This document shows, piece after piece, positions 22,521 to 57,745 of a stretch of 64,000 nucleotides of DNA. The translations under genes were made by a program, and so were the position numbers. The first letter of the stretch is position 1; every line of letters starts with the position of its first letter. This DNA is from Liolophura sinensis (lineage: Eukaryota > Mollusca > Polyplacophora > Chitonida > Chitonidae), in contig NC_088301.1 of the NCBI RefSeq assembly GCF_032854445.1, positions 10,162,281 through 10,226,280 of the forward strand, in the 5' to 3' direction. Under the pieces are notes generated by a model that searched no databases, was not told the DNA's origin, and saw only the letters and a program-made list of their open reading frames with translations.

Positions 22521-22587
22521 ATGCTCACAAGGGTGTTATCCATATTTGTACAGGCTTTTGTCATGATTACTGCCTCGTCGGAGAATT
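22521..22587 (+). CDS. Receptor exon 1: signal peptide
   Basis: Starts at ATG 22,521 with A at -3. Encodes MLTRVLSIFVQAFVMITASS then EN, a hydrophobic core followed by a small-residue cleavage site. The donor GTGAGT follows, leaving phase 1, which matches exon 2. The alternative ATG at 22,493 is in another frame. Confidence 0.8.
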
Positions 22588-24058: not shown

Positions 24059-24340
24059 GTGAGATCAATACTCACGACGAGAGGCTGAAGCCCGTAGAGA
24101 CTTTAGAACTGGTGGCCGGAGAGATGTTACATTTAAAATGCACGGCGCCTCAACTGCTTGGAGTCAAGAATCTGACCTTTTCCTGGAACAATTTTGACCT
24201 CAGTGAGTACACCAAGACGTTCCCTGAGGAACGCAGAGCTGAACTGCGCGTGGAGAACACAGTGCCGTTCGCCGGAGTCTCACACGTGTACTGCGGATAC
24301 GGCGGTTTACAGGACTGCGGCAAACTTGTACTTATTGGAT
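24059..24340 (+). CDS. Receptor exon 2: Ig-like domain D1
   Basis: The acceptor TTTCCAG ends at 24,058 and the donor GTAAGT starts at 24,341. It enters in phase 1 and leaves in phase 1. The 94 residues include GEMLHLKCTAP, LTFSWNNF and SHVYCGYGG, the B-strand cysteine, C-strand tryptophan and F-strand cysteine of an Ig fold. It ends with CGKLVLIG, which leads into D2 as gp130 D1 does. In gp130 this domain binds a neighbouring cytokine (site 3). Confidence 0.85.
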
Positions 24341-26263
24341 GTAAGTATGCACGGCTTCTTCTACAACACCTTCAGTGTTAAGTCTGAATAAAATAATGTA
24401 TCGTGTGTCTCTGTACGAATCATTTAATGCAAATCTGGCATTATACACCTGTTTCAGGGCCAGAGAAGTCGCCCTGATGCCTTTGGTGACATATAATATC
24501 AGTATGAAACTGGTCACATACAATATCGATATGAAATTGATCACATACAATATCGATATGGCATTGGACACATACAATATCGATATGAAAATGGTCACAT
24601 ACAATATCGATATGAAATTGATCACATACAATATCGATATGGCATTGGTCACATACAATATCGATATTAAATTGATCATATACAATAACGCTATGAAACT
24701 GGTCACATACAATATCTATATGAAATTGATCACATACAATATCCATATGAAACTGGTCACATGCAATATCTATATAAAAGTGCTCACATACAATATCGAT
24801 TTGAAACTGATCACATCCAATATCGATATGAAATTGGTCACATACAATATCGGTATTAAACTGGTCATATAAAATATCGATATTAAATTGGTCACATACA
24901 ATATTGATATGAAACTGATCACATACAATATCGATATGAAACTGATCACATTCAATATCGATATGTTTCATAAAGCTCACATTACAGTCGAGACGTTTAA
25001 CTGCATTTAGGTCAGTCGAAATTTCTAAACAAAATCAGTAGAGGCATTTTCAAATGCATTTAAAATGTAAAAGATAGCAACAGTTATGTGTCACCGAAAA
25101 GGATACTGAGACAAATATACGAGATTACCTAATTATTTGGCGTTTTTAAAACAAATCAAGTAGTTGTATTCTATGGTGCGCTGAACGACCCATATTTGGT
25201 ATGTTAATAATGTGACAACAGTTACTTTCACTTTCACCTATAGAGGAATTCTTTAGGATTTTGCTTGTAGTTTACTGTAATTATTAACAATCCCTATCGT
25301 TCTATCTTCCGTCGCATATGGCGTGCATTAAAACAAATATTTAAATTACATAATTTTTTCAGAACCGTGTAGATGCTGAAACTCGACAGTGGAGTCTAGT
25401 GGATAGGCCTAAATTTCTTTATTTAAATAAATAAATAAATTCAAATATTTTTAAAAAATCACGACGAAATCAATTTCTGCTTTTTCATCCACTTGGACTC
25501 CGTGAATTTACCGCCATGATATTTAATAATTATGAATATTACACACCCACGTAAATATGTGATATATTTGATCACTGAGTGTCAGGTTTAGAGCTAAGTT
25601 CTCCCTTATGACATCAATGACACCATAAATGCATCAGCATCAATAAATTCTGAAAAAATGAGTATAAGTAGTTTCAGATATGGTTTTGACGCTTGCTTCA
25701 TTTTACATGTATGTAGACTGATACACTGTGATATGTATGCTTATTGCATTTGAGCCTGTAACATGTAGACTATTTCATGACATCTTGGCATATGTTGGTG
25801 GGTCAGAAATGATTATTACCTTTCAAGATGTCACCCTGTTTGACATCGCTCATTTCAGACTTGTACTTAAAGGTACACAGAATCGACGTTGATTGGCCGA
25901 CAGTGGAGATAGGGTCTTCTGGGTTAAATCTTGCAGCCTTGTTGACGCTTGAAAAAAATGTACCATTCCTACAATTCAGCTTAGGCATGGTAGAGCATGG
26001 ATTTGCCTATCTCTTACACCAGCCAATCAGGATCGATTTTGTATCCCTTTAAGTCTAAATTTTTTCCTGTGATACTATCTCACCGCCTGTTATGCTGAAA
26101 TTTTTCTAATGCACATTGTATAATATGTCTGAAATATTAAAAGTCTTACATTTTAAACATTTTGACTAATTACGTATTTAAGAGGACTAAGGTTTCTTTT
26201 TCTGCCATTCCCGATATGTGTAGTGCATATTACAGTTACTCGGTGTCCATGTGTTTGTCCTAG
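24341..26263. other. Receptor intron 2
   Basis: Carries the 27-bp array at 24,481-24,965. The region 26,114-26,230, just before exon 3, has a diverged copy at 32,197-32,306. Confidence 0.7.
24481..24965. repeat. 27-bp minisatellite in intron 2
   Basis: About 18 copies of a CACATACAATATCGATATGA unit with a 27-bp period, nine codons. This keeps one plus frame and two minus frames open for 126-179 codons. These reflect repeat periodicity, not genes. Confidence 0.93.
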
Positions 26264-26396
26264 ACCGTCCCGTGAAGCCACAGAACATCCGCTGTGTGTC
26301 CCAAGCTCTGAAGGACATGGTATGCACGTGGGATCAAGTGAAAGGTGAAGAGGACCTTAAAATACTCACCAACTGGACCCTTTCGTACCGCATCGG
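26264..26396 (+). CDS. Receptor exon 3: first half of FnIII D2
   Basis: The acceptor GTCCTAG ends at 26,263 and the donor GTAACT starts at 26,397. It enters phase 1 and leaves phase 2. Contains PVKPQNIRC, then a second cysteine exactly ten residues on (DMVCTWD), then LTNWTLSYRIG. This is the conserved first disulfide and CxW motif of class I cytokine receptors, with the same spacing as gp130 D2. Confidence 0.9.
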
Positions 26397-27540: not shown

Positions 27541-27731
27541 GCATCGTTCTAAAATGGTGAATTGTACAGATCAGCGAAAGACACAAGATACATGTTTCTG
27601 GTCCTCAATAAATTTAGACGATCCGCGATTGGCTTTCAAGCGAGGCTTGCTCTATCACATGGTGGTGACCGCTTATAATGCTCTTGGTAGGACACAATCC
27701 GACGAAGTCGTCGTCGACCCTGATGAAATAG
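27541..27731 (+). CDS. Receptor exon 4a: second half of D2, version a
   Basis: The acceptor TTTATTTTCAG ends at 27,540 and the donor GTATTT starts at 27,732. It enters phase 2 and leaves phase 1; length 191 nt. Encodes HRSKMVNCTDQRKTQDTCFW, with cysteines ten apart as in the second disulfide of gp130 D2, then LLYHMVVTAYNALGRTQSDE, matching the F and G strands (gp130 has ENALGKVTSD). In gp130 this half holds the EF-loop cytokine contact. It is an alternative to exon 4b: phase allows only one of the two in a mature mRNA. Confidence 0.9.
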
Positions 27732-28419
27732 GTATTTATTCAACTGGAAAAAAAATATTATTAGGGAACAATGGGCATAACATCCTCTGAAAGCTTGATT
27801 CCCTACGCGAAAAATACAGAAATATCATAATCACTTTAGTTTTGCTTCAAATTGGAACAGTTTAGATGTTGCAGACAGTTAACACATGCCTTCCTTACTA
27901 TTTTAGGATAAACGGTAATATATTAGTAGTAAAATAGTAGGATCGTTTTATTTATCAGTTTTGTACTAGTGAATAGCCTTTACCATGAATAAACTTCAAA
28001 ATAGTCTTGGTTTCTTAGAGAAATTCCCGTCGAAATCCGCCATCGTCAAATTCAGTATTTATTGATGTCATATTTTATTTGTGTTATATTTTATTATGAG
28101 TTTAACGTTCGAATAATTAACATTTCATTTATACGACGAGAGTTTCGTTTGTGGGTAGAGGAAACCAGGGGGAGCCTGGGGAAAACCTCCGACCTTAGCT
28201 GAGCATCTGACAAACATTTTAAGCTGAAGCGAGATGGACTTGAACACATGAAATCATTGGTCAAGGCTATCAGTGGTTGGTTACAAGCCAGGGCTATGTC
28301 ATGTCAAGATTTCAAATCAAAGGCTCAGTCAGCAAATCGAAACATGTAAACATTCCATCTTACAAACATTGCACTATGTGTATCCTTAGATTCTGACGGC
28401 GGTTTGACATAGTGTCTAG

Positions 28420-29820
28420 CCATAGTCATTAGGGTGTTATGGGTTCTGGCATAAAGTAAACAGTCATTAAGGTGTTCAGGGCTCTGACACAAAGTCATTA
28501 ATGTGTGAAGGGGTTTGGCATAATTGCTAGCTATTGTCATTAAGGTGTTAAGGATTCTGCAATAAAGTTACTAGTTATAGTAATTAAGGTGTTACAGGGT
28601 TTGGCATAGTGCCTAGCTATAATCATTAAGGTGTTAGGGGTTCTGGCGTAAAGTCCCTAGTTGTAGTCATTAAGGTGAGATAAGTTTGGCATAGTTCCTA
28701 GCTATAGCCATTAATGTGTTAAGGGTTCTGACATAAAGTTGCTAGAGTCATTAAAGTCTCAAGGGTTCTGACATAGTTCCTAGCTATAGTAATTAAGGTG
28801 TCAAGGGTTCTCACATAGTTCCTACAGTCATTAAAGACTCAAGGGTTCTCACATAGTTCCTACCTAGAGTTATTAAGGTGATACGGATTCTGGCACAGTT
28901 CCTGCCTCTAGTGATTAAGGTGTTACGGGCTCTGACATACTCTAGTTCCTACCTATAGTCATTAAGGTGTTACGGGCTCTGACATACTCTAGTTCCTACC
29001 TATAGTCATTAAGGTGTTACGTGCTCTGACATACTGTAGTTCCTACCTATAGTCATTAAGGTGTTACGTGCTCTGACATACTGTAGTTCCTACCTGTAGT
29101 CATTAAGGTGTTACGTGCTCTGACATACTGTAGTTCCTACCTGTAGTCATTAAGGTGTTACGTGCTCTGACATACTGTAATTCCTACCTGTAGTCATTAA
29201 GGTGTTACGTGCTCTGACATACTGTAGTTCCTACCTATAGTCATTAAGGTGTTACGTGCTCTGACATACTGTTGTTCCTACCTATAGTCATTAAGGTGTT
29301 ACGTGGTCTGACATACTGTTGTTCCTACCTATAGTCATTAAGGTGTTACGTGCTCTGACATACTGTTGTTCCCACCTATAGTCATTAAGGTGTTACGTGC
29401 TCTGACATACTGTTGTTCCTACCTATAGTCATTAAGGTGTTACGTGCTCTGACATACTGTGGTTCCTACCTATAGTCATTAAGGTGTTACGTGCTCTGAC
29501 ATACTGTAGTTCCCACCTATAGTCATTAAGGTGTTACGTGCTCTGACATACTATAGTTCCTACCTATAGTCATTAAGGTGTTACGTGCTCTGACATACTG
29601 TAGTTCCCACCTATAGTCATTAAGGTGTTACGTGCTCTGACATACTATAGTTCCCACCTATAGTCATTAAGGTGTTACGTGCTCTGACATACTGTAGTTC
29701 CTACCTATAGTCATTAAGGTGTTACGTGCTCTGGCATACTGTAGTTCCTACCTATAGTCATTAAGGTGTTACGTGCTCTGACATACCTCCTACCTATAGT
29801 TATTAAGGTGTTATGGTTTG
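28420..29820. repeat. 47-bp minisatellite between exons 4a and 4b
   Basis: About 28 copies. The later ones are nearly identical, with CATTAAGGTGTTACGTGCTC and TGACATACTG... exactly 47 bp apart (for example 29,161 and 29,208). The earlier copies (28,420-28,900) are diverged and of variable length. Confidence 0.95.
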
Positions 29821-29943
29821 TTATAGGTGTGGATGTTATAAGAATGTAGGAGAGAACCTTTTTCATTTCATTCCGGATACAGAGCTTATTCCCAGCTTCT
29901 CATTGATCCATCACCATTATGTATCACTGCCCGGAATATCCAT

Positions 29944-30190
29944 ACAACTCTGCCCTCCTACGACAAAAGGAAGCAAGTGACAAATGCATTGTATTGATAT
30001 TTTAACCCAAAACATAAACACTGTAGGCCTTTCTTGGTCTTTCCCTATATCAGGATATATAATTTAAAGGCAAATTAACCCTAATATAGGGAAAGTTGAA
30101 GAAAGGCGCACACTGTTAATGTTTTTGGTCAAAATATCAGTAGAATGCATTTGTTACCTACTTTCTTTTGTCATAGTGGGGCAGAATTGC
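29944..30190. mobile_element. Long fold-back element (arms about 104 bp)
   Basis: The left arm, 29,950-30,053, begins CTGCCCTCCTACGACAAAAG and ends TTTCCCTATATCAGG. The right arm, 30,080-30,183, is its inverted copy with about 20% mismatches. Only about 26 bp separate the arms. It is either a non-autonomous DNA transposon or a large RNA hairpin within the pre-mRNA. Confidence 0.85.
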
Positions 30191-30420
30191 AGGAACGTAA
30201 CTCGGAGGAAAGACAACGTCTGCATTTTGGTATTTAATATCTCAGCATTAGATTTATAACGAATTTGAAGAATTGTTAAACGTTGAGTTAACAATTTTTG
30301 ATGTCAGTAATTGATAATTAAAGACTTCAACGTTCACTTTAATTGAAAGAAAGAATAATATAAAGTCGAACAAAACAATGATGATCTTGATATCAGCGAA
30401 AGGTGGTAGCCACTCAACAA

Positions 30421-30471
30421 TCACCTAAACAAGAACAAAAAGCGAGCACAAAGTTGTTCTTGTTTAGGTGA
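30421..30471. other. Perfect 18-bp inverted repeat (hairpin)
   Basis: TCACCTAAACAAGAACAA at 30,421-30,438 and its exact complement at 30,454-30,471, with a 15-nt loop. The outer segments GCGAAAG (30,396) and CTTTCGC (30,472) extend the pairing. Confidence 0.85.
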
Positions 30472-30950
30472 CTTTCGCGCGCCCTCTTATGATGTATATA
30501 CATGCGACCATCGTTGTTTCGCCTGGCTTGCTAACCCTTGGAATTGGCATAAAACTATTGATAAAATATTAAATAGCAAAAATGAAGACTTTGTATTCCC
30601 TCAGAGCTATACGTTCCTATTATTATTACCACAACCCACGCTTCTTAGAGTTAATTGCACCACATGCATCATCCCTGCGTGAACCGTCGGTTGTCAGAGA
30701 GTGACAGATTGCGAGGGAGCGTGAGACGTAGGGTTGAGCTATCTATGTGGCCAGTACATACAGCAGCGGGCTCCCATAAGCAAAAATGTCAGCACATTTC
30801 AGCTTCAACTTTCATTATTCCTTCAATATCTCATGGTGTGTTTTTTTTCTTCATTCATCGATCTGTAACGTTTGCATTTCAATACATTCTGAATAATTCT
30901 AAACCTGATTAATTGCATCTAACATCACTGCATTTTTCACCTAATGCTCA

Positions 30951-31130
30951 ATCCATTTTACCAGGGAAGGTGTAATTTGCTACTATTTAAGCCATTTTAC
31001 CAGGGAACGTACAAATTGCTACTATTTACGCCATTTTACCAGGGGACGTGTAAATTGCTACTATTTAAGCCATTTTACCAGGGGACGTGCAAATTGCTAC
31101 TATTTAAGCCATTTTACCAGGGGACGTGTG
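30951..31130. repeat. 39-bp minisatellite
   Basis: Five copies of a 39-bp unit, CCATTTTACCAGGGGACGTG plus AAATTGCTACTATTTAAG. The period is 13 codons, so the + frame stays open. Confidence 0.92.
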
Positions 31131-31759
31131 ACAGCATTGTCAATAAATTGCATTGACAGCATTGTCAATAAGCATTGACATGAACCGATTGAATAAAATC
31201 TTAACTGAAGTAAATTCCTATAGAACCGGATTATACTGGTTACATGTGACCGTTATGCAGCTATCATACCATCATCGATTCTCTGGTTTTGCTCTCCATG
31301 ATGTGGTCTTGCTCATTTTATGTTACACATGCTGGGCATTTTCCTAGATGAGGAATTCTAATGACTCCAGATTCCTATTGTTTCTTTCCATGGAGTTAGA
31401 TAACGTGTTGTGAAGAAGAAATGGAAAGCTGGTTAGCCGAGTTGCCATCTGCTGGAAAGCGGTTATGTAGGTAAATGGTTTTGGAGCTCTGTTCGTCAGA
31501 GGCCTTCGTCGTCCCAACTCCCATACATCACGAACTGTTTCCATGGAAAATACCAATGTGAGCTAAAGCATAATCATACAAACCAACGTTAGTTCATCAA
31601 CTTCTGATGCACGACGTCCTGGCGCCGTGTCCGACTGTTGTACTCAATGGAGACATCCCGGGGTTGCCTGCAGATGCCTGCAGATGGCTGGGCTCTCTGT
31701 GCAACGATTGATTATTATCATGGCGAAACTTCATGAAAATCGAAACATTTACCTTTCAG

Positions 31760-31944
31760 AGAAAGCTCCGCCTCAGATGCAGACTGTCCTTACCCAAACC
31801 GTACATCTTGTCAGTGGAAGTCGATCTCATCAGAAAAACATAACCAGGCGCTCAAGTGGGACGAGACATACCATACCACTGTCATTGCCACAAATAAGCT
31901 GGGCACTGCGAACGCATCGGCGTCGTTCATACCGAGGCTGTTAG
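31760..31944 (+). CDS. Receptor exon 4b: second half of D2, version b
   Basis: The acceptor TTACCTTTCAG ends at 31,759 and the donor GTATTG starts at 31,945. It enters phase 2 and leaves phase 1; length 185 nt, 61 whole codons without a stop. Encodes ESSASDADCPYPNRTSCQWK, then KWDETYHTTVIATNKLGTAN. It shares with exon 4a the cysteine pair, the CxW, SI, YH..V.A.N.LG pattern and the splice phases, but little else. It adds sequons NRT and NAS. Joined to exon 3 it completes D2 just as 4a does. Joining 4a to 4b would shift the frame. Confidence 0.82.
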
Positions 31945-32194
31945 GTATTGGCAAGCCCGCCCCTATTTGTTGTCACGTGGCACGCTTCAGTCAGTTTCTT
32001 TTGTCATGTGCCTGCGGATATCCAGCTGGTGTTGTAGCATCTCTGCTATACAAGTAAAAACTTCGTACTGAACTTATGCGGTCCGGAGAAAGCATTGTGT
32101 ACTGCATGCGCCCCTCTATTCGCATGTCGTGTCGTATCTTGTTGTCTTGGTTGTTGATATACATTTAAAGATATAACAAAGCAAGAGCCTAATT

Positions 32195-32545
32195 ACATGG
32201 AATAATATGCGTGAGATATCAAAATTCTTACGTTTTAAACATTTTAATTACTTGTGAATTTAAGAGAGTTGTGACTTTATTTTCTTCCACGCCCAACATC
32301 CGTATTGCTTCAAAGCGAAACTGTTAGGTATTGTCAACTCCTCCCCTATCTGACACGCTTCAGTCATTTTCTGTTGTAATACGTCTGAGGACATTGAAGT
32401 GTTGTAGCATCTCTTTTATACAGATAGAAAACTTCGTACTGAAAATTTACAGTCCGGAGAAAGCATCGTGTAGTGTATGCGGTATGGAAACGTTCCTTAC
32501 TTTGCATGTCATTTCCTGTGCCTTGCCTGTCATATATATTTAGAG
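32195..32545 (+). pseudogene. Remnant of a third exon-4 cassette
   Basis: 32,318-32,545 is a diverged direct copy of the exon-4b end and following intron at 31,936-32,175. Shared blocks include CTGTTAGGTATTG, GTGTTGTAGCATCTCT, AACTTCGTACTGAA and GTCCGGAGAAAGCAT. Immediately before it, 32,197-32,306 copies the intron just upstream of exon 3 (26,114-26,230; shared TTTTAAACATTTT and ATTTAAGAG). Only about 25 nt of exon-like sequence and the donor survive between the two, so the coding body has been deleted. Confidence 0.75.
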
Positions 32546-33492: not shown

Positions 33493-33650
33493 TTAAACCA
33501 AACCAGGTACCAGTTAAGGCCGGCCCTCAGCTGGAGAACCGGTCTCTGCCCGTTACCATGGAGATTCCACACAACCTGGAGGGGGTCATCAAACAGTTCG
33601 AATACAGTTTGAACGCTACATGTCTCTCTGGACGAAATGAAAGCGATAGG
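33493..33650 (+). CDS. Receptor exon 5: first half of FnIII D3
   Basis: The acceptor TTACCTAG ends at 33,492 and the donor GTAAGT starts at 33,651. It enters phase 1 and leaves phase 0. Begins VKPNQVPVKAGPQLENRSLP, equivalent to gp130 VKPNPPHNL at the D2-D3 border, then VIKQFEYSLNATCLSGRNES. Minus-strand frames of 75 and 136 codons overlap here and are shadows. Confidence 0.85.
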
Positions 33651-34725: not shown

Positions 34726-34876
34726 GTCATACATGGCACTGGGAGTGGGCCCGTATCTTTCCGCCTGGATAACTTGATGCCTAACAGTAAATACCTACTC
34801 AGTGGGAAGATTAAACCGAATGGCAGCGGATACTGGAGCGACCCATATGACCTAGAGATTGAAACACAAGAAGCAG
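34726..34876 (+). CDS. Receptor exon 6: second half of D3, WSXWS-like
   Basis: The acceptor TTTGCCACTAG ends at 34,725 and the donor GTACAA starts at 34,877. It enters phase 0 and leaves phase 1. Contains FRLDNLMPNSKYLLSGKIKP and then GSGYWSDPYDLEIETQEA. YWSDPY stands where gp130 has YWSDWS: the second half of the WSXWS motif is lost, while the first WS and following acidic strand remain. Confidence 0.88.
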
Positions 34877-35789: not shown

Positions 35790-35875
35790 CTCCGGAAAAC
35801 AGACCATCCGAGGTGGCTTTCACTCAGTGCCGGGGAGACTCCCGGGACAAACGCCGTGTGGACGTATACTGGCAG
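35790..35875 (+). CDS. Receptor exon 7: first part of FnIII D4
   Basis: The acceptor TGTTGACAG ends at 35,789 and the donor GTACGA starts at 35,876. It enters phase 1 and leaves phase 0. Encodes APENRPSEVAFTQCRGDSRD then KRRVDVYWQ. ENRPSEVA corresponds to EDRPSKAP at the start of gp130 D4, and the VDVYW segment is the B-C strand. Confidence 0.82.
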
Positions 35876-36914: not shown

Positions 36915-37134
36915 TATCTGGACTCTATCTTTTCCAACGGGAAGATAACTCACTACAGGGCAAGAGTGACGTCATCAGCTGGCACGTGGACGAAGCAAAC
37001 GACGGAACTCTTCTCACCGATGACCTTCGATGACCTTAACATGACTGACAACTATGATCTGGAGGTGGCGGCCTCCACGCTGGCAGGTTGGGGACCATAC
37101 AGTTGGCCTGTCCAACTTTTGCCGCTTGACCAAG
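36915..37134 (+). CDS. Receptor exon 8: rest of D4
   Basis: The acceptor GATTCACAG ends at 36,914 and the donor GTACAC starts at 37,135. It enters phase 0 and leaves phase 1. Contains SNGKITHYRARVTSSAGTWT and then YDLEVAASTLAGWGPYSWPV, a typical C'-strand and F-G strand pattern (Y-x-L-x-V-x-A, then W-G-P-Y-S). Confidence 0.88.
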
Positions 37135-38746: not shown

Positions 38747-38919
38747 AGTTACCACTGGCCGCTGATGTCATAGCGGAGAGCGAGACTGATGAAGACGGTG
38801 GCGTCAGTGTGAATGTCTCCTGGACATCGCCCAGTGCCAGTCAGGCTTCGCATGCCAAAGTCTATGTCTGCTCCGGTCACATCGAAAGACCGATGGATGT
38901 CTTTCTAGCGAAGTGTGAG
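38747..38919 (+). CDS. Receptor exon 9: first half of FnIII D5
   Basis: The acceptor ATCTTGCAG ends at 38,746 and the donor GTAAGT starts at 38,920. It enters phase 1 and leaves phase 0. Encodes ELPLAADVIAESETDEDGGV, then SVNVSWTSPSASQASHAKVY, with the fibronectin-III B-strand tryptophan and proline. Confidence 0.87.
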
Positions 38920-40100
38920 GTAAGTCTGAGGTGAAACTAAGCTGAATTTTAGGCTGGGTACACCCATTAAATCGTCACCAGAATATGCCTACTCAGTCCA
39001 ATCTTCAGCGGAGATTCTGTATTTATTTAAAAGGAGAGAAAAAATAAAAATTAAAAAGTTCACATGAAAGAGTGCGGAAAGTTAGTTGTAAATGTGGTCT
39101 TCAAAATTTTTTTTTCGATTTTTCTTTAAAGAGAATAGACACCTGAAAATAATTTTTGTTCGGAGGTATTTGGGACTACCTTTTGTATATTTATTTATTT
39201 ATTTTTTTTTTTGATTGGTGTTTTACGTCGTAATCAAGAATATTTCACTTATACGACGGCGGACAGCATCTTGGGGGGAAGAAGCCGGGGGAAACCCACG
39301 ACCATCCGCAGGTTGTTGCAAGACCTTCCCAAGCTAGCCTTTTCGTATATACTGTCTTTGTGTCATAAATTATAAATGAGTATGTAACACATTTTAAGAA
39401 GATATTTGAACTAGAATTTGGTCTTTTTAGATAACAGATATGTTTATCTTGGATTTTGATCATATTTAAATTTTTAATATATTTGGATGTAAATAACAAC
39501 TAAACTAAATTTTTTTGACATGCATCACATCCTTATTTAGAACATTATTGTACAAAGGCGATAAATGCCAAGAGGTGGTCCGAAATACCCACCATACAAA
39601 AATATTTTCAAATACCCTTTTATCCTGAAAGCAAAAATCGAAAAATATTAAAAACCATATTTGTAAACAAGTTTTCGCGCTCTTTCATCTGATTTTGGCA
39701 TAATTTATATGTTTTCTTCTCCTTTGAAGAGAAAGAGGTCAGCTACAAGGTAAATTTTATAGCATTTTGATTTATACCCATTCCTGGCGGCATCTATTCC
39801 ATCTGGGGTCATTTGAATAGGAAATTGGTGTGCAATAAAATGTCACCGCAAGCGAAACTACATGTAGGAACAATATTGGTTGCACCATTTGGGAATACGA
39901 TACAAATACATGTACGATAAATACGATACAAAGTGGAGGCATGCTATATACACAGAGTGTCAGATATGAAATATTTTCAACGGGTCCTACACGAGTCCTC
40001 ATGCACCTTGTCTAGCTCGTCGATAGACGAGATGAAACTCTTAGAAGCTAGTCAAAATCTCTTTCACTTACGTCCATAAATCTAAGTTTCGTGTTTTCAG
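38920..40100. other. Receptor intron 9 with a SINE
   Basis: A family-A SINE lies at 39,188-39,335. The remainder is AT-rich and featureless. Confidence 0.65.
39188..39335 (-). mobile_element. SINE (family A), 5'-truncated
   Basis: A TTTATTTATTTATTTTTTTT tail, GATTGGTGTTTTACGTCGTA, ATACGACGGC, AACCCACGACCATCCGCAGG and GACCTTCCCA are present. The tRNA-like head is missing. Confidence 0.88.
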
Positions 40101-40266
40101 GGAGACATACGTACCGAGGACGTCGAGATGTCAACAGAGACCTCCAGACACTGGCTTGACGTCAGGATTAGATCGGACCGTGACGTCGTGATCGGTGTGG
40201 CACTGAATATAAGTGGTGTCAGCGGTGGGATCACGTGGGCGGAGTGCTTGGCGGACAGAAACACAG
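40101..40266 (+). CDS. Receptor exon 10: second half of D5
   Basis: The acceptor GTGTTTTCAG ends at 40,100 and the donor GTGAGT starts at 40,267. It enters phase 0 and leaves phase 1. Encodes GDIRTEDVEMSTETSRHWLD, VRIRSDRDVVIGVALNISGV, then SGGITWAECLADRNT. The frame and phases link cleanly to D6. Confidence 0.85.
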
Positions 40267-41234
40267 GTGAGTCTGGACATCTGTGTTACAGGGATGGATT
40301 CTTAACAGTGCCGGGGCCTAAGTTAATCGTTTCAGATTCGTATTATAATGACAGAAGCCGGGCACTTTTGTTTCCCCCATCCATAACAACCGACTTGCAA
40401 CCATTCTATAAATGAATAATTCTTGAGTATCTCACAACAACCAAACCAAACTAAACCAACGACAGAAGATATTTGTTTGATTTTTTTTTTTGATTGGTGT
40501 TTTACGCCGTACTCAAGAATATTTCACTTATACGACGGCGGCCAGCATTATGGTGGGTGGAAACCGGGCACAGCCCGGGGGAAACCCACGACCATCCGCA
40601 CGTTGCTGGGAGACCTTCCCACGTACGGCCGGAGAGGAAGGCAGCATGGGCTGGTCTTGAACTCACAGCGACCGCATTGGTGAGAGGCTTCTGGGTCATT
40701 ACGCTGCGCTAGCGCGCTAACCGACTGAGCCACGGAGGCCCCAATATTTGTTTGATACTGGTTGAATCGTGCCTTTCAAACAAACGATACATTATATATA
40801 ATATCCAATTCCGAGTAATGTGTGCCATTTGGGAAATTCATTGTGCTTTTCATTTTATCTAATAAACTTAATTTTTATAGCCACTTATGTCCTATAACGT
40901 GCATGATAAAATTGGCACCTGGTTACATAGAAAACTTAACTTTTATCTCCACTATTCATATTTAGCAGTTGATGTAGCTTTTGTGAATTGAATATGGTGT
41001 GTTTTCCTTTGCTCTAGGATATATTGGTTGAGGTACAGAAGAATGCATAGAAGAAGAACGTGTGAAAGTAGAAACACACATAAAGTCAAAGCAGTTCGTT
41101 CTTCACACGGCGAGAGTAAGCCTTGGTGAAATGGGCTATAATGCAGGTGTCGGTGAAGACAACGGTTCGCAATTCACAGTTAGCTACTCCATGGGGAGGA
41201 GCTCTTAATTTCATTGAATGAAATTTCTTTCTAG
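40267..41234. other. Receptor intron 10 with a full-length SINE
   Basis: Besides the SINE with its target duplications (40,469-40,756), no feature is seen. Confidence 0.7.
40482..40743 (-). mobile_element. Full-length tRNA-derived SINE with target duplication
   Basis: Flanked by the 13-bp duplication ATATTTGTTTGAT (40,469-40,481 and 40,744-40,756). On the minus strand it begins GGGGCCTCCGTGGCTCAGTC, a pol III A box within TGGCTCAGTCGGT, and has a B box GAGTTCAAGACCAG. The body with CCCGGGCTGTGCCCGG follows, then the conserved domain CGTATAAGTGAAATATTCTT, GAGTACGGCGTAAAACACCA and an A-rich tail. It is the reference copy for all family-A pieces here. Confidence 0.95.
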
Positions 41235-41387
41235 AACCGAGCCAGATGAGAGGAGTGAGCGTCCTGGATGTGGAGACCAATGCTGCGGTGGTTCAGTGGA
41301 ATATGATGTCATGTGAGGTTCAGATCAGGGGTTATCAGATTAGCTATTGGCCAGTGACAGACACAAGCAAACAGGACTGTGAGGACG
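41235..41387 (+). CDS. Receptor exon 11: first half of FnIII D6
   Basis: The acceptor TTTCTTTCTAG ends at 41,234 and the donor GTAAGT starts at 41,388. It enters phase 1 and leaves phase 1. Encodes VSVLDVETNAAVVQWNMMSC, then QIRGYQISYWPV, the B-strand tryptophan and C'-strand GYxISYxPV of a fibronectin-III domain. Confidence 0.9.
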
Positions 41388-41986
41388 GTAAGTGACCTAA
41401 ATAGGCAACACCCAACAGCATGGTGTATTCTACCACAGCTTCCTGCATTCTAGACGATCTTAATGTCTTATTATTCTGGATATGTTAATGTTTAAGGGGT
41501 GAGGTGGAACAGAGTCCCGGGTCATTCTTTTCATTATCAACTTTATACTATTAAGAAACTTCATATAATATAGTTATTCTACCATTAATTAATTCCGTTT
41601 TTTTATTTCTTAATTTTCTGTGTCAAAGAGAACGTGTCATTCCTTTCATTTTCAAATTTATACTTACAAGAAACTTCAAATATTGTATGACATATTCTAC
41701 CATTGATAAAATTCCATTTTTTTCATTTCTTAATTTTCTGTGGTGAAGTGGGACACGTTTCTGCGTCATTCTTTTCATTTTCAAATTTATACTAACAAGA
41801 AATTTCAAATAATATATGAGGTATTCTATCATTAATAAAATTTCATTCCTTAGTTTTCAGGAGTTTTCCGAATTACATGACCTTGAAAAATACATTAATT
41901 CACGTTTAACATTGTCCTTCAGTATGTCACATTATGGTACATGTTATCGTCCTTAATTTAACTACGCTCCCCTTCTTACCCCGAAG
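41388..41986. repeat. Receptor intron 11 with three about 120-bp repeats
   Basis: Units at about 41,490-41,605, 41,606-41,735 and 41,736-41,860 (anchor spacing 115 and 129 bp) match the pair in intron 8 (37,600-37,820). Confidence 0.8.
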
Positions 41987-42145
41987 GTATCAAACAAGAC
42001 TTCCGCGGTGGGAGAAAAACATTGAAAGCTCGCCTAAACAACTTGGACGAAGCAACCAAGTATACCATGTGCGCCAGAGCATTGACCGCTAGTGGAAAGT
42101 ATGCCCCATGGAGTGAGACGTTCCTAGGGGAGACAATCACGCCAC
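41987..42145 (+). CDS. Receptor exon 12: second half of D6
   Basis: The acceptor TTACCCCGAAG ends at 41,986 and the donor GTAATG starts at 42,146. It enters phase 1 and leaves phase 1. Contains LKARLNNLDEATKYTMCARA and then GKYAPWSETFLGETITP: the fibronectin-III E-F strand L-x-x-L-x-x-x-T-x-Y pattern and the PWSE close to the membrane. Confidence 0.9.
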
Positions 42146-43433: not shown

Positions 43434-43506
43434 CGCCGGTGTTGATGATAAGTCTAGCGTCTGTGGCAGTGGTGCTTCTGATTTTGTGTATTATAGGGGT
43501 GGGTGG
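43434..43506 (+). CDS. Receptor exon 13: transmembrane helix
   Basis: The acceptor GCTTGTAG ends at 43,433 and the donor GTGAGT is at 43,507. It enters phase 1 and leaves phase 2. Encodes PPVLMISLASVAVVLLILCI then IGVG, an unbroken hydrophobic helix. Two other GT positions (43,499, 43,503) are possible donors, but only 43,507 has the GTGAGT consensus and the right phase for exon 14. Confidence 0.9.
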
Positions 43507-43774: not shown

Positions 43775-43838
43775 GGCACGTTGTTACATCCAAAAACAAA
43801 TTGCTGTTCAAAGCGTACCCGAAGTGCAGATTGAAGAG
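43775..43838 (+). CDS. Receptor exon 14: juxtamembrane segment
   Basis: The acceptor AATTCCAG ends at 43,774 and the donor GTAAGT starts at 43,839. It enters phase 2 and leaves phase 0. Encodes GARCYIQKQIAVQSVPEVQI then EE. A basic anchor follows the helix, and IAVQSVPEV sits where a JAK-binding Box 1 (hydrophobic, then PxP) is expected. Only one proline is present, so Box 1 is degenerate or absent. Confidence 0.85.
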
Positions 43839-45295: not shown

Positions 45296-45373
45296 ACCAC
45301 TCAGAATTACACTTATGACGATTACACAACCGTAGATGGATACGAAGCGACCCCAGCACCAGGGGACAACCAA
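45296..45373 (+). CDS. Receptor exon 15: cytoplasmic, tyrosine-rich
   Basis: The acceptor CCTTTCCAG ends at 45,295 and the donor GTAAGG starts at 45,374. Phase 0 on both sides. Encodes TTQNYTYDDYTTVDGYEATP then APGDNQ. Four tyrosines in acidic context could be SH2 docking sites. Its symmetric 26-codon length would allow skipping without a frameshift. Confidence 0.82.
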
Positions 45374-45983: not shown

Positions 45984-48900
45984 GCGGGTGCTAAACGTGA
46001 CAGCGGCCATGGATCAATGTCCAGAAGTAGTGAGTCTAGCACCGAATCCTGTCAGCCTGCCGCGGGTACCCGGGAACATTCATCCTCGGCTGAGTCTACA
46101 GCTGCCGTGCGACTACCGCGTACAGAAGCGGTACAAGCCACGGTCAGACAGACGTGTAGAGACAGGGTCACCCAGTCGAGAGATGAGGAAACAGAAGCGG
46201 CTAATCTCCTCCCTAGCAGTGGTTATGTTCTCGAGACAAGTTTGCGCAAGACCGAGCATCAGCCCATGCCCCAGGCTTGTCTCTCCGACGAGTCAAGGGA
46301 GACAACACGGTTGCTCGCTCCTTCGGCGAAGGATGAGGGTTCCCTGCATGGTGGAACCTGTGCAGATGTCTATGACTGCAGACCTAATGACCTGGCTTAC
46401 GTTCAGATCGGAAGCAATCTATACACAGAGGGGAATCTTTCGGACGATGAGAATTTGATGAACAACGTCATTCCTTGTGCCAGCTTTACTGCGAATGAAA
46501 TTTGTGAGCAAAGAAAGGGAGGTGACTCTGACAGTGATGTTGACACTGCCTGGCATCGTGGCGAGCGTAGACTCCATTCAAGGCCAGAGTTAACCGATAA
46601 TCTGATCCCAAGCAGGGGAGATAACTCTAGTGACCGTGCTGAAGCAGGAGCCTACTGTAGATTTGATACAAATGTATACGCACCAAGCAGTTCAGGGGGT
46701 GGAATGGATTCCTACTCTAGATTTATGGAAGAGTCTTTGGGAGACGCAGACTTTCACAGAAACGAAATACACGCTGCAACAAATTCCTCTGACACTATGG
46801 AGTCATACTCAAGGTTCGGTGCTTGTCCTGTCATTAACTCCCGGTCAAATTCCAGCAATTCGGCTTTTTCTTCAAACAGCATGGCTAGTGCACATTTCGA
46901 ACAGGAGGGTGGGGACAAAATCCCATCAGGTGTGTTGACGTACGGTCCCTCTACTTCATCCAACTGCGCTGACAATGGAATTGCTCCATATTCCAGATTG
47001 AGAAGAGATTTTGAAATATCTGCTGACTCTGACACACCACGCATGCACTCCAATAGATGGAATGGACAAGCAGTTCAACTGCCCACTGACACATGTTTTA
47101 CCCAAGATGCCACTGGTATCTCCAGCAATTCTGAACGAGGTATTGGCTGCTACACTCGATTTGACAAACACCCAATCGGAACGCCAAGAGCAACAACATC
47201 AACAACACCTGCAAACGTCAACGACTTGGCCAGTGGACATAACGACGAAGCACAGTCTTCTTGTGAACAAACCAGACTTTCAAATACCCGGCCTCCAACT
47301 TCAGATAACGACGAGTGGCCCTCAGATAGCCAGAGTCATTCTTTGGGTAATCCACCACGTTTTTCTGGCTACCCACGTCTTCCTCTTGAATGCCGAGGCC
47401 AGAAATCTGCTTACCAACCTCATCCGCCTGAACCTCATAACTACCACATCCAACATCAAACTTCCTCACAATACGAACGTCAGACTTCTGGAATTCAGGC
47501 TCAACCTTCTGGAAATCAGGTTCAACCTTCTGGAAATCAGGCTCAAACTTCTGGAAATCAGACTCAAACTCCTGACAACCAACGTCAACCCTCATCACAA
47601 TACGGACGTCATACTCCTGGAATTCAGGCTCAACCTTCGGACTACCAACCTCACCCTTTTGACTACCAGCTTGACCCATCTGAATACCATTGTTACCCTT
47701 CTGACTACCAGCGTCACCCATCTGAATACCAACGTCACCCTCCTAACTATCAACGACACTCATCGAACTATCAGCATAACCCTTCTGACTACCAGCGTCA
47801 CCCATCTGAATACCAATGTCACCCCTCTGACTACCAGCGTCAACCGTCTGAATACCAACGTCACCCTTTTGGCTATCAACGTCACTCATCGAGCTTTCTG
47901 CGTCACCCTTCTGACTACCAGCGTCGCCCGTCTGAATATCAACGTCACCCATCTGAAGACCAACATCATCCTTCTGAATACCAGCGTCACCCATCTGACT
48001 ATCAACGTCACTTATTGAACTATCAACCTCACCCATCGGACTACCAGCGTCACCAATCTGAATGCCAACGTCACCCTCCTGACTACCAGCCTCGCCAATC
48101 TGAATACCATCGTCACCCTTCTGAATACCAGCGTCACCCACCTGACTATCAATGTCACTTATCGAACTATCAACCTCATGCATCGGACTACCAGCGTCAC
48201 CTATCTGAATGCCAACGTCACCTTTCTGACTACCAGCGTCACCCATCGGACTATCAACCTCACCCATCGGACTATCAACCTCACCCATCGGAATTCGAAC
48301 GTCACTCATCGGAATACGAACGTCACCAATCGGAATACGAACATCAACCATCTGACTTTCAATATCACTCATCAGACTTTCAGCGTCTCCCATCTGACTC
48401 TCAGTGTCCCCCATTTGAATACCAAGGTCAACTTTATGACTGCGAGCGCCAACCTCGTGACCACCCACGTCAGCTTTCTGCACCACGACGTCAACTTTAT
48501 GATAACCAACATGACCCATCAGACTACAAGCGCCAGCGACCATCCTCTGACTACCAGCGTCATGCTTCAGAACACCAACCCGAAGCCTCAGAGCATCATA
48601 GTCAACAGTCAGCTGATTATCCGAGTTCGTATAGTCGATTTTCAGCATGTCGTGAAGTCACTACAGCAAATCAGCCTCAGGTTTATGTGGATTTGAACGT
48701 TACAAAAGACAATCCAAAAAATGCGGATAGGACTTCTGTTAAACTGGAGAAGGGCGGAAATGTGCTTTATTCAGCCTGCGACGTACCGATAAGCAAAAAC
48801 ATTGCTCATTTCGGCGCATTCGCAGCACAAGATCTCAACTGTAACAACAGGAGAGATCATAAAGGCGGAGAAATGTTTATTGACGATCTTAATTTTGATA

Positions 48901-49286
48901 TCCTTGATTTTGACCATTTTCTCCAAGACAGTACAGTTGAGGGCGTCATGGGTGATAACGAGAGCATTACAGTAGGGGGTGGCGAGAACAGTGCTGTAGG
49001 CGGCGATGGAAGGAGTGCTGTGGGCGTTGGCGGGAGCATTGCTTCAGGCGGTGGCAGGAGCATTACTTTAGGCGGTTGTGGGAGCATTGCTTCAGGCGAT
49101 TGTGAAAACTTTGCTTCATGCGGTTGTGTGAACATTGCTTCAGGCGGTAACAGAAGCAGTACACTAAGTGACAGTTCCTCGAACTGCCCGTCAGGAGACA
49201 ATGCAAATAGCGTTTGGGTTCAAAGCTCGAGGCCTTCGTCACCTACAGCGAAAGACAACTACTGCGTTAAAGAAACTGTACTTTAA
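45984..49286 (+). CDS. Receptor exon 16: repeat-rich cytoplasmic tail and stop
   Basis: The acceptor TTTTTCTAG ends at 45,983; phase 0; stop TAA at 49,284-49,286. Encodes residues 719-1818. It opens with AGAKRDSGHGSMSRSSESST: DSGHGS (724-729) fits the beta-TrCP degron DSGxxS, and the serine run recalls gp130 GHSSGIGGSSCMSSS. Acidic dileucines EAANLL (789-794) and ETTRLL (824-829) follow. YCRF, YSRF, YSRF, YSRL, YTRF and a late YSRF are spaced through the tail. Heptads run from about 1221 (GIQAQPS type) and 1271-1596 ([D/E]YQRHPS type). Seven YxxQ motifs (YHIQ, YERQ, YQRQ, YEHQ, YQGQ, YDNQ, YKRQ) fit STAT docking. Near the end are an acidic-hydrophobic stretch (1683-1701) and a Gly/Ser repeat. 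The antisense and +1/+2 frames of 71-335 codons over this exon are shadows. Confidence 0.92.
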   Translation, partial: AGAKRDSGHGSMSRSSESSTESCQPAAGTREHSSSAESTAAVRLPRTEAVQATVRQTCRDRVTQSRDEETEAANLLPSSGYVLETSLRKTEHQPMPQACLSDESRETTRLLAPSAKDEGSLHGGTCADVYDCRPNDLAYVQIGSNLYTEGNLSDDENLMNNVIPCASFTANEICEQRKGGDSDSDVDTAWHRGERRLHSRPELTDNLIPSRGDNSSDRAEAGAYCRFDTNVYAPSSSGGGMDSYSRFMEESLGDADFHRNEIHAATNSSDTMESYSRFGACPVINSRSNSSNSAFSSNSMASAHFEQEGGDKIPSGVLTYGPSTSSNCADNGIAPYSRLRRDFEISADSDTPRMHSNRWNGQAVQLPTDTCFTQDATGISSNSERGIGCYTRFDKHPIGTPRATTSTTPANVNDLASGHNDEAQSSCEQTRLSNTRPPTSDNDEWPSDSQSHSLGNPPRFSGYPRLPLECRGQKSAYQPHPPEPHNYHIQHQTSSQYERQTSGIQAQPSGNQVQPSGNQAQTSGNQTQTPDNQRQPSSQYGRHTPGIQAQPSDYQPHPFDYQLDPSEYHCYPSDYQRHPSEYQRHPPNYQRHSSNYQHNPSDYQRHPSEYQCHPSDYQRQPSEYQRHPFGYQRHSSSFLRHPSDYQRRPSEYQRHPSEDQHHPSEYQRHPSDYQRHLLNYQPHPSDYQRHQSECQRHPPDYQPRQSEYHRHPSEYQRHPPDYQCHLSNYQPHASDYQRHLSECQRHLSDYQRHPSDYQPHPSDYQPHPSEFERHSSEYERHQSEYEHQPSDFQYHSSDFQRLPSDSQCPPFEYQGQLYDCERQPRDHPRQLSAPRRQLYDNQHDPSDYKRQRPSSDYQRHASEHQPEASEHHSQQSADYPSSYSRFSACREVTTANQPQVYVDLNVTKDNPKNADRTSVKLEKGGNVLYSACDVPISKNIAHFGAFAAQDLNCNNRRDHKGGEMFIDDLNFDILDFDHFLQDSTVEGVMGDNESITVGGGENSAVGGDGRSAVGVGGSIASGGGRSITLGGCGSIASGDCENFASCGCVNIASGGNRSSTLSDSSSNCPSGDNANSVWVQSSRPSSPTAKDNYCVKETVL
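47490..48615 (+). repeat. Coding 21-nt (heptad) array in the receptor tail
   Basis: About 54 seven-residue units. The first block is GNQAQPS-like (47,490-47,639). From 47,640, units read DYQRHPS or EYQRHPS, with PHPS, CHPS and RHSS variants and later decay to DFQ, ECQ, EHQ. The register of seven is kept almost without indels, and tyrosine is retained in about three quarters of units. Confidence 0.93.
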
Positions 49287-57179: not shown

Positions 57180-57745
57180 CCTCAAATTCTTAACCCGCTT
57201 TTCTTCATCAACCATCTAAATGTAGCATTTATTATCTGTTTGTAGAATAGCCGGACGTTTGTCACATATCAGTTGGACTGACTCTGTGTTGTGTGAAGAT
57301 TGTCTGTTGTGCTATGAAGTGATGAAAGTGATAAACGAGCATCAGACCGCGCGTGGTATCGTGACGTCATGCCGGTTAATGTAGCTGTCAGGTGAAACAG
57401 AATCGCACCTGTCTGTCTTTGAAGCGACAATTGCAGTCAGGAAGGATTTCTAATGATCGATGGTATCGGGTGTTTGTGATACCTGTGGATTCTTTGTGAA
57501 AGAGTAGCATTCCCTGGGAGTGGCCGGTCACGTGGTTGTCTGGATGGATAACAATCCTAACATTACATATGGTCAACCTGCTGTTTTAGGGTCAGCTCTC
57601 TAGATGCTGAACAAAAGCGCACTCAGTGATGTATACCTCAGTGCTTGGGTAAGATGCGTCCAAACCAAGAGTTTTGTTACCGCAGAGACGACCGGTGTAA
57701 GATTATGACAGTGCGCACACTACCGTAAAGTCAACGGATGCCAAC
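57180..57745 (+). promoter_or_regulatory. Upstream region of the XKR gene with a CRE
   Basis: Contains TGACGTCA at 57,362-57,369, about 380 bp before the start codon. No TATA box or initiator could be assigned. This should include the promoter or 5' UTR of the gene at 57,746. Confidence 0.4.

What the first reader, a model, noticed from the sequence alone, without database searches (positions are those of the whole stretch)
27541..31944. Frame-enforced mutually exclusive exons in the cytokine-binding domain of a gp130-like receptor
Seen: exons 4a (191 nt) and 4b (185 nt) both follow good acceptors, both enter in phase 2 after exon 3, both leave in phase 1 into exon 5, and both lack stops. Both keep a cysteine pair, a CxW and a YH..V.A.N.LG F-G strand pattern at the same places, yet are otherwise strongly diverged. 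Since 191 and 185 are both 2 mod 3, inclusion of both or of neither breaks the frame. Known: in gp130, this half of D2 carries the second disulfide and the EF-loop contact with helical cytokines. Inference: one locus makes two receptors with different cytokine-binding faces and the same signalling tail, a way for an animal with few cytokine receptors to widen ligand choice. I do not know of mutually exclusive exons described in gp130 or Domeless receptors.
Basis: partly seen in the sequence, partly recalled or inferred. Interest (0 to 1): 0.93.

Follow-up and report, generated by a model that had tools for sequence, protein, structure and literature searches.

The report
Swappable half-domain in chiton cytokine receptors
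A gp130-like cytokine receptor gene of a chiton carries two alternative versions of half of its ligand-binding domain that only fit one at a time, and a neighbouring sister gene carries such a pair too, which suggests that these animals widen their receptor set by splicing; RNA evidence is still missing.

Summary
Exons 27541-27731 (191 nt) and 31760-31944 (185 nt) have AG/GT sites, enter in phase 2, leave in phase 1 and are stop-free; with either, the frame runs from exon 2 to the stop at 49286. Skipping or joining both gives an early stop. New here: a tandem paralogue 66 kb upstream (gene B) also has two exon 4s (173 and 185 nt), same phases, and a third gp130-like gene (C, another scaffold) has one. 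Profiles built without the exon under test recover 5 of 5 (E 8e-7 to 1e-11); no other of 2,970 ORFs beats E 0.079. Silent sites between A and B are saturated, so an unused exon should have decayed. Both spliced forms match gp130 best, though 4b itself adds little; the swapped segment includes the position of gp130 Phe169. I read it as mutually exclusive exons working like FGFR IIIb/IIIc. Exclusive splicing and changed ligand choice are untested: no transcripts were available. The genome is a published chiton assembly, identified by scaffold lengths.

The parts
22521..22587 (+). putative signal-peptide exon (MLTRVLSIFVQAFVMITASSEN), donor in phase 1; tentative
   Evidence: ad hoc scan of 1-24000, the one candidate left by its filters
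24059..24340 (+). exon 2, Ig-like domain D1
26264..26396 (+). exon 3, first half of D2 with C-x9-C-x-W; leaves in phase 2
27541..27731 (+). exon 4a, second half of D2, version a (191 nt)
31760..31944 (+). exon 4b, second half of D2, version b (185 nt); a second in-frame acceptor would start it at 31766
33493..33650 (+). exon 5, first half of D3
34726..34876 (+). exon 6, second half of D3 with degenerate WSXWS (GYWSDPY)
35790..35875 (+). exon 7, first half of D4
36915..37134 (+). exon 8, second half of D4
38747..38919 (+). exon 9, D5
40101..40266 (+). exon 10, D5
41235..41387 (+). exon 11, D6
41987..42145 (+). exon 12, D6
43434..43506 (+). exon 13, transmembrane segment
   Evidence: end set one base short, corrected
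43775..43838 (+). exon 14, juxtamembrane
45296..45373 (+). exon 15, cytoplasmic
45984..49286 (+). exon 16, long cytoplasmic tail with stop codon

Best explanation
Exons 4a and 4b are a pair of mutually exclusive exons, made by exon duplication, that encode alternative second halves of cytokine-binding domain D2 in a gp130-like receptor. A transcript joins exon 3 to 4a or to 4b and then to exon 5. Transcripts with both or neither are frameshifted and meet an early stop, so they make no full receptor and are probably removed by nonsense-mediated decay. The result would be two receptors with the same signalling tail and different D2 faces, probably with different ligands or partners, as FGFR IIIb/IIIc do. 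Shown: anatomy, phases, open frames, homology, the second pair in gene B. Inferred: exclusive splicing, decay of wrong products, change of ligand. How the choice is made is unknown; about 4 kb (gene A) and 6.5 kb (gene B) between the exons speak against steric exclusion, and all their sites are GT-AG.
For: Exact phases, open frames and splice dinucleotides; frame open from exon 2 to the terminal stop with either exon, 1796 and 1794 codons; early stops with both or neither in gene A and gene B. Tandem gene B has 4x (C7:10127731-10127903, 173 nt) and 4y (10134420-10134604, 185 nt), same phases. Leave-one-out recovery of 5 of 5 exons, E 8.2e-7 to 1.1e-11, against 0.079 for the best other ORF. Silent sites between A and B are saturated: same base at 13 of 45 fourfold sites in five constant exons. 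One exon 3 per gene, no third exon 4 found. With 4x or 4y, D2 of gene B passes a curated Pfam cut-off of a cytokine-receptor binding family (EpoR_lig-bind 28.6 vs 27.3; IL6Ra-bind 27.2 vs 24.3); D2 of gene A with 4a does too (LIFR_D4 29.1 vs 25). Parallel: FGFR1-3 all keep the IIIb/IIIc pair, which in FGFR2 swaps the second half of an Ig ligand-binding domain (PMC4566030, passages).
Against: No transcript evidence. Donors of 4a and 4b score 4.2 and 2.9 on a PWM from 16 constant donors, only one of which is lower; 4b's acceptor (4.5) is middling. Codon usage supports coding only for 4b (3.5% of 87 null ORFs as high) and C4 (1.2%), not for 4a (22%), 4y (14%) or 4x (61%). Similarity of 4x/4y (0.068/0.061) and of 4a/4b (0.134/0.135) lies under the 0.15 default of WebScipio, though my gap costs differ. 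Alone, neither exon peptide passes a Pfam cut-off (4a no family, 4b LIFR_D4 at E 0.092); the complete D2 with 4b was not scanned against Pfam. 4b adds little to the gp130 match. No intron pairing above shuffles.
Confidence: 0.78

Rival explanations
1. Only 4a is used; 4b (and 4x of gene B) is a leftover of an exon duplication that is not spliced into stable mRNA.
For: 4b's donor (TAGGTATTG, 2.9) is weaker than 15 of 16 constant donors, and 12% of the GT sites of the window score as high; 4b adds 2.5 bits or less to the gp130 matches 3l5h and 8v2b; no transcripts.
Against: 4b is fully open with both cysteines and C-x-W; a b-like exon is also intact in gene B although silent sites between the genes are saturated; 4b has the best codon score of the four A/B exons; it adds 9.2 bits to the match with prolactin receptor 1f6f.
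Confidence: 0.1
2. The second exon is a regulatory (poison) exon: its inclusion together with the first, or skipping of both, switches receptor production off through nonsense-mediated decay; two receptor forms are not the point.
For: Both wrong products stop early in both genes; with both exons joined the stop is the last codon (TAG) of the second exon in both genes.
Against: A poison exon need not stay open in its own frame with the conserved cysteines, C-x-W and F-G strand residues, as all four do.
Confidence: 0.08
3. Both exons are used exclusively but the swap does not change the ligand; it tunes stability, the D2-D3 elbow, or pairing with a partner chain. (A variant of the best explanation, so the odds overlap.)
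For: The swapped segment also runs to the D2-D3 linker (exon end to exon 5); no ligand of this receptor is known, and IL6-like ligands were not found in most invertebrates (PMC13203501, passages).
Against: The segment includes the position of gp130 Phe169, a key site-II residue; 4a, 4x, 4y and C4 have Phe there, 4b has Leu.
Confidence: 0.3
4. The exon pairs of genes A and B arose independently after the gene duplication (a rival for the history, not for the mechanism).
For: The order differs: a then b in gene A, b then a in gene B; no alternative topology is rejected (AU 0.08 for (A4a,A4b),(B4x,B4y) with LG+G4, 0.11 with LG); by BLAST A4a is as close to B4x (27.7 bits) as to B4y (27.3).
Against: The best tree joins A4b with B4x with four, five and six sequences; with four the log-likelihood gap is 2.2 (LG) or 3.6 (LG+G4). 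BLAST scores sum highest for the pairing by type (62.0 against 46.2 and 44.7). Third-position identity is higher within types (0.39, 0.41) than between the two exons of one gene (0.20, 0.25); the cross pairs give 0.25 and 0.35.
Confidence: 0.25

Closest known systems
FGFR1-3 exons IIIb/IIIc
   Same: Mutually exclusive exons encode the second half of an extracellular ligand-binding domain; kept in several paralogues (PMC4566030, passages read). Decay of wrong FGFR2 isoforms is cited in PMC6071210 (passage and reference entry seen).
   Different: Ig domain of a vertebrate receptor kinase; splicing and ligand change are established there, not here.
gp130 / class I cytokine receptors (including Domeless and molluscan 'IL6R')
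   Same: Ig D1, two-domain cytokine-binding module with C-x9-C-x-W and a second Cys pair, three further FN3-like domains, one TM segment, long tail; best PDB match is gp130.
   Different: WSXWS is degenerate, Box 1 unclear; no mutually exclusive exons in D2 of such receptors turned up in my searches, seen mostly as listings.
Dscam-type exon clusters with competing RNA structures
   Same: One exon of an array is used per transcript; such arrays are thought to come from tandem duplication (PMC6071210 abstract).
   Different: Only two exons here, and no docking/selector-like pairing found in a simple test.

Membership tests
Mutually exclusive exon pair | adjacent homologous exons of similar length | tested here: met
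   191/185 nt in A, 173/185 nt in B; leave-one-out HMM E 6e-8 to 1.1e-11 for these four
Mutually exclusive exon pair | same reading phase at both ends, no in-frame stop | tested here: met
Mutually exclusive exon pair | inclusion of both or neither breaks the frame | tested here: met
Mutually exclusive exon pair | WebScipio default similarity of 15% of self score (a search setting, not a biological criterion) | tested here: not met
   0.134/0.135 in A, 0.068/0.061 in B with my gap costs (cut-off in PMC3228551, passages)
Mutually exclusive exon pair | exactly one of the two in mature mRNA | not testable with these tools
   no RNA data held; five-tissue RNA-seq is public (PMC11068029, passages)
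gp130-like class I cytokine receptor | CX(9-10)CXWX(26-32)CX(10-15)C in the cytokine-receptor module (PMC1963337, passages) | tested here: inconclusive
   C-x9-C-x-W met; x29 (4a) and x30 (4b) met, counted by hand; the last spacing, 9 (4a) and 7 (4b), is below 10, but human gp130 has 9 in the alignment
gp130-like class I cytokine receptor | sequence match to cytokine-receptor domains | tested here: met
   gp130 best in PDB, E 3.5e-11 (4a) and 1.6e-7 (4b); Pfam LIFR_D4 and EpoR_lig-bind over cut-off for the 4a form
gp130-like class I cytokine receptor | WSXWS in the second domain | tested here: not met
   GYWSDPY in A, GYWSEPS in B, GGFWSED in C; degenerate versions only, so I say gp130-like
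gp130-like class I cytokine receptor | Box 1 JAK-binding motif after the TM | tested here: inconclusive
   IQKQIAVQSVPEVQIEE resembles it only loosely, judged by eye against a recalled motif
FGFR IIIb/IIIc-like ligand switch | the two forms bind different ligands | not testable with these tools
   no ligand known for this receptor

The most novel reading that the evidence does not exclude
Class I cytokine receptors have, in a chiton, an exon-swap switch of the FGFR IIIb/IIIc kind in the cytokine-binding module itself, old enough to be present in two diverged tandem receptors, so that two genes make four receptors with different cytokine faces.
Probability: 0.5. Interest if true: 0.8.

Novelty: new variant of a known kind. 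Interest (0 to 1): 0.64.

Why it matters
Some invertebrates have very few class I cytokine receptors (two in a sea squirt, abstract of PMC1963337 as listed), and IL6-like ligands have not been found in most of them (PMC13203501, passages). Here I found three gp130-like genes. An exon swap inside the cytokine-binding domain would give two receptors per gene with one signalling tail, a way to widen ligand choice without new genes. It also gives a handle on the unknown ligands: a protein that binds one form and not the other. The splicing claim can be tested at once on public RNA-seq of five tissues.

Tried and rejected
Long-range pairing between introns as the cause of exclusion: the longest gapless helices (14, 15 and 14 nt) between the three intron pairs, repeats masked, are no longer than in 20 shuffles each (mean 15.0-15.6, max 18-20). 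A tree of the exon copies cannot settle one versus two duplications: 61 columns, no alternative shown rejected at 0.05 by AU, and with C4 or gp130 added the place of A4a and C4 shifts, though A4b with B4x stays in the best tree. A 114-nt similarity between the intron before exon 3 (26113-26226) and the intron after 4b (32195-32308) first looked like a trace of a larger duplication; the same stretch also matches five places on C6 and one on C8. A third exon 4: none found in A, B or C. Relatives elsewhere in the genome: only genes A, B and C give convincing matches (in which only the best candidates are scored); matches outside these genes start at E 0.17 (C6:70228409, C7:8795755) and were not followed up. 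COX1, for naming the organism, was found, but my one-frame translation of the 3-kb locus was unreadable; scaffold lengths named it instead. Structure prediction was not run, because the spliced domain is not contiguous in the DNA and half a domain would fold poorly. Papers: 10 searches used; in the listings and passages that I saw there was no exclusive exon pair in the cytokine-binding domain of gp130, Domeless or another class I receptor. Of the 61 papers and the 36 only the 20 and 25 listed were seen, as listings; of those, which hold both 'mutually exclusive exons' and 'gp130', I opened none (10 of 11 listed). So this is weak evidence of absence.
Full report
WHAT WAS CHECKED. 4a is 27541-27731 (191 nt) and 4b is 31760-31944 (185 nt); both follow AG, precede GT, enter in phase 2 after exon 3 and leave in phase 1 into exon 5. 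In each exon just one of three frames is free of stops, and it is the one set by exon 3; a second frame of 4b is open up to its last codon. The window has no N, and exon 4a matches one place in the genome by DNA search.

THE GENE. I assembled the coding exons by hand from splice sites and frame: Ig-like D1 (24059-24340), D2 (exon 3 plus 4a or 4b), D3 (33493-33650 and 34726-34876, with GYWSDPY), D4 (35790-35875 and 36915-37134), D5 and D6 (38747-42145, four exons), a transmembrane exon (43434-43506) and a tail ending at 49286. With either exon 4 the frame is open to the terminal stop: 1796 codons with 4a, 1794 with 4b, counted from exon 2 (one search shows a stop in exon 15 because I had set the end of exon 13 one base short). 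The start of the gene is uncertain; one signal-peptide-like exon was found at 22521-22587. D2-D3 with 4a matches gp130 best in the PDB at E 3.5e-11, and with 4b at E 1.6e-7. A control with the exon-4 part masked still gives E 9.1e-8 for its best chain; for chain 3l5h, 4a adds 15.7 bits (46.1 against 30.4) and 4b adds 2.5 (32.9); for the best chain of the control, 8v2b, 4b is slightly lower (34.4 against 35.5); for prolactin receptor 1f6f, 4b adds 9.2 (29.8 against 20.6). So 4a is clearly gp130-like and 4b is a strongly diverged version that still fits the family. Alone, neither exon peptide passes a Pfam cut-off. WSXWS is degenerate and Box 1 is unclear, so I call the gene gp130-like.

FRAME LOGIC. 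Skipping both exons gives TAA at nucleotides 2-4 of exon 5; joining both gives TAG as the last codon of 4b. Any duplicate of an exon bounded by phases 2 and 1 has this property, so it does not by itself show regulation. That double or skipped products are destroyed is an inference.

THE DECISIVE NEW EVIDENCE. A genome search with exons 3 to 5 found a tandem paralogue on the same strand (gene B), its exon 3 at C7:10122413-10122545, about 66 kb upstream of exon 3 of gene A. Gene B also has two exon 4s: 4x at C7:10127731-10127903 (173 nt, most like 4b) and 4y at 10134420-10134604 (185 nt, like 4a), same phases, before an exon 5 at 10136061. Gene C on C9 has exon 3 near 5340025 and one exon 4 at 5344002-5344189 (188 nt). 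I then built profiles from five of six sequences (the five exons plus the matching part of human gp130), leaving out the exon under test, and searched all 2,970 stop-to-stop ORFs of 30 or more residues on both strands of the three regions. The left-out exon came back each time, 5 of 5: A4a 1.1e-11, A4b 6.0e-8, B4x 1.4e-8, B4y 4.3e-10, C4 8.2e-7; the best ORF that is not one of the five was E 0.079 over the five scans. So A and B have two each and C has one, at this sensitivity. In gene B, too, both wrong products stop early: in exon 6 when both are skipped, and at the last codon of 4y when both are joined.

AGE AND CONSTRAINT. Between A and B, exon 3 is 60% identical in protein and four other constant exons 29-41%; third codon positions of these five exons are 25-37% identical and 13 of 45 fourfold sites agree, close to chance. 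An exon without function should have lost its frame or splice sites over that time; four of four are intact. History is less clear. With four exons the tree favours A4b with B4x and A4a with B4y, but not significantly (AU of the alternatives 0.08 to 0.22). With C4 added the best tree keeps A4b with B4x but puts A4a beside them and B4y with C4; with gp130 added the second-best tree (0.06 log units behind) puts B4x with C4. By BLAST A4a is as near to B4x as to B4y. C4 is a-like by eye in Cys spacing and exon end, so type a may be the older one. The order of the two types is reversed between A and B, which I cannot explain.

WEAK POINTS. Codon usage supports only 4b and C4 clearly, and 4x not at all (87 null ORFs); the donor sites of 4a and 4b are weak on a model from 16 donors. 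A scan in the style of WebScipio (PMC3228551, passages read) finds the pair as the best candidate for each other in both genes. In A the scores are 0.134 and 0.135 against reverse-strand nulls of -0.012 and -0.003 (only 7 and 8 null candidates); in B 0.068 and 0.061 against 0.013 and -0.023. All lie below that program's default cut-off of 0.15. A 47-nt candidate for gene B exon 7 scored 0.116 and a null for A exon 14 reached 0.115, so short exons are noisy.

WHERE THE SWAP FALLS. In the alignments the residue of gp130 called Phe169 (numbering fixed by cysteines 112, 122, 150 and 160, recalled) lies inside the swapped segment. It is a key site-II residue for IL-6, viral IL-6 and LIF (PMC7378365, passages read). 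The aligned residue is Phe in 4a, 4y, 4x and C4 and Leu in 4b. All five exons keep the Cys pair and C-x-W. This makes a ligand or partner change plausible, no more.

MECHANISM OF CHOICE. The exons lie 4,028 nt apart in A and 6,516 nt in B (from the coordinates above), so steric exclusion is unlikely; all their sites are GT-AG and none looks U12-like to me (motif recalled); no intron pairing exceeds shuffles. What remains is frame plus decay, with an unknown regulator.

ORGANISM. Contigs C7 (60,359,117 bases) and C9 (37,343,639 bases) equal in length scaffold_3 and scaffold_5 of the chiton assembly published as Liolophura japonica, which also has 632 scaffolds (PMC11068029, passages read) and was later corrected to L. 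sinensis (PMC12441733, whole text). The total differs slightly: 609,464,459 bases here, 609,495,693 in the paper.

KNOWN OR NEW. The principle is known: FGFR1-3 keep the exclusive exons IIIb and IIIc, which in FGFR2 change the second half of a ligand-binding Ig domain and ligand specificity (PMC4566030, passages). I found no report of it for the cytokine-binding domain of gp130, Domeless or other class I receptors in searches, most of whose hits I saw only as listings. Hence: a new variant of a known kind, strongly supported by DNA, untested by RNA.

Noticed in passing
window 31926-32110 and 32309-32481: The end of exon 4b with its donor and about 165 nt of the following intron are repeated some 370-383 nt downstream (75-85% identity in pieces), a small local duplication at the alternative exon.
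   Followed up: partly
window 45984-49286: The receptor's last exon encodes an 1100-codon tail with many tyrosine repeats of the type S-D/E-Y-Q-R-H-P; from the TM segment on there are 62 Tyr and 7 YxxQ motifs.
   Followed up: partly
C7:10127731-10127903 and C7:10134420-10134604 (gene B): Order of the two exon types is b then a, the reverse of gene A.
   Followed up: partly
window 28804-29902 and 24375-25073: Minisatellites of 47 nt and 27 nt period inside introns of the receptor.
   Followed up: no
window 29945-30189: Fold-back element, two 110-nt arms 82% complementary, between 4a and 4b.
   Followed up: no
window 57701-59767: Open frame of 689 codons with Pfam XK-related (E 6.4e-59), downstream of the receptor on the same strand.
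   Followed up: partly
G000 contigs C99 and C632: Seven COX1 matches about 15.5 kb apart on C99 (one of them shorter) and one on C632, perhaps a head-to-tail mitochondrial assembly artefact.
   Followed up: no
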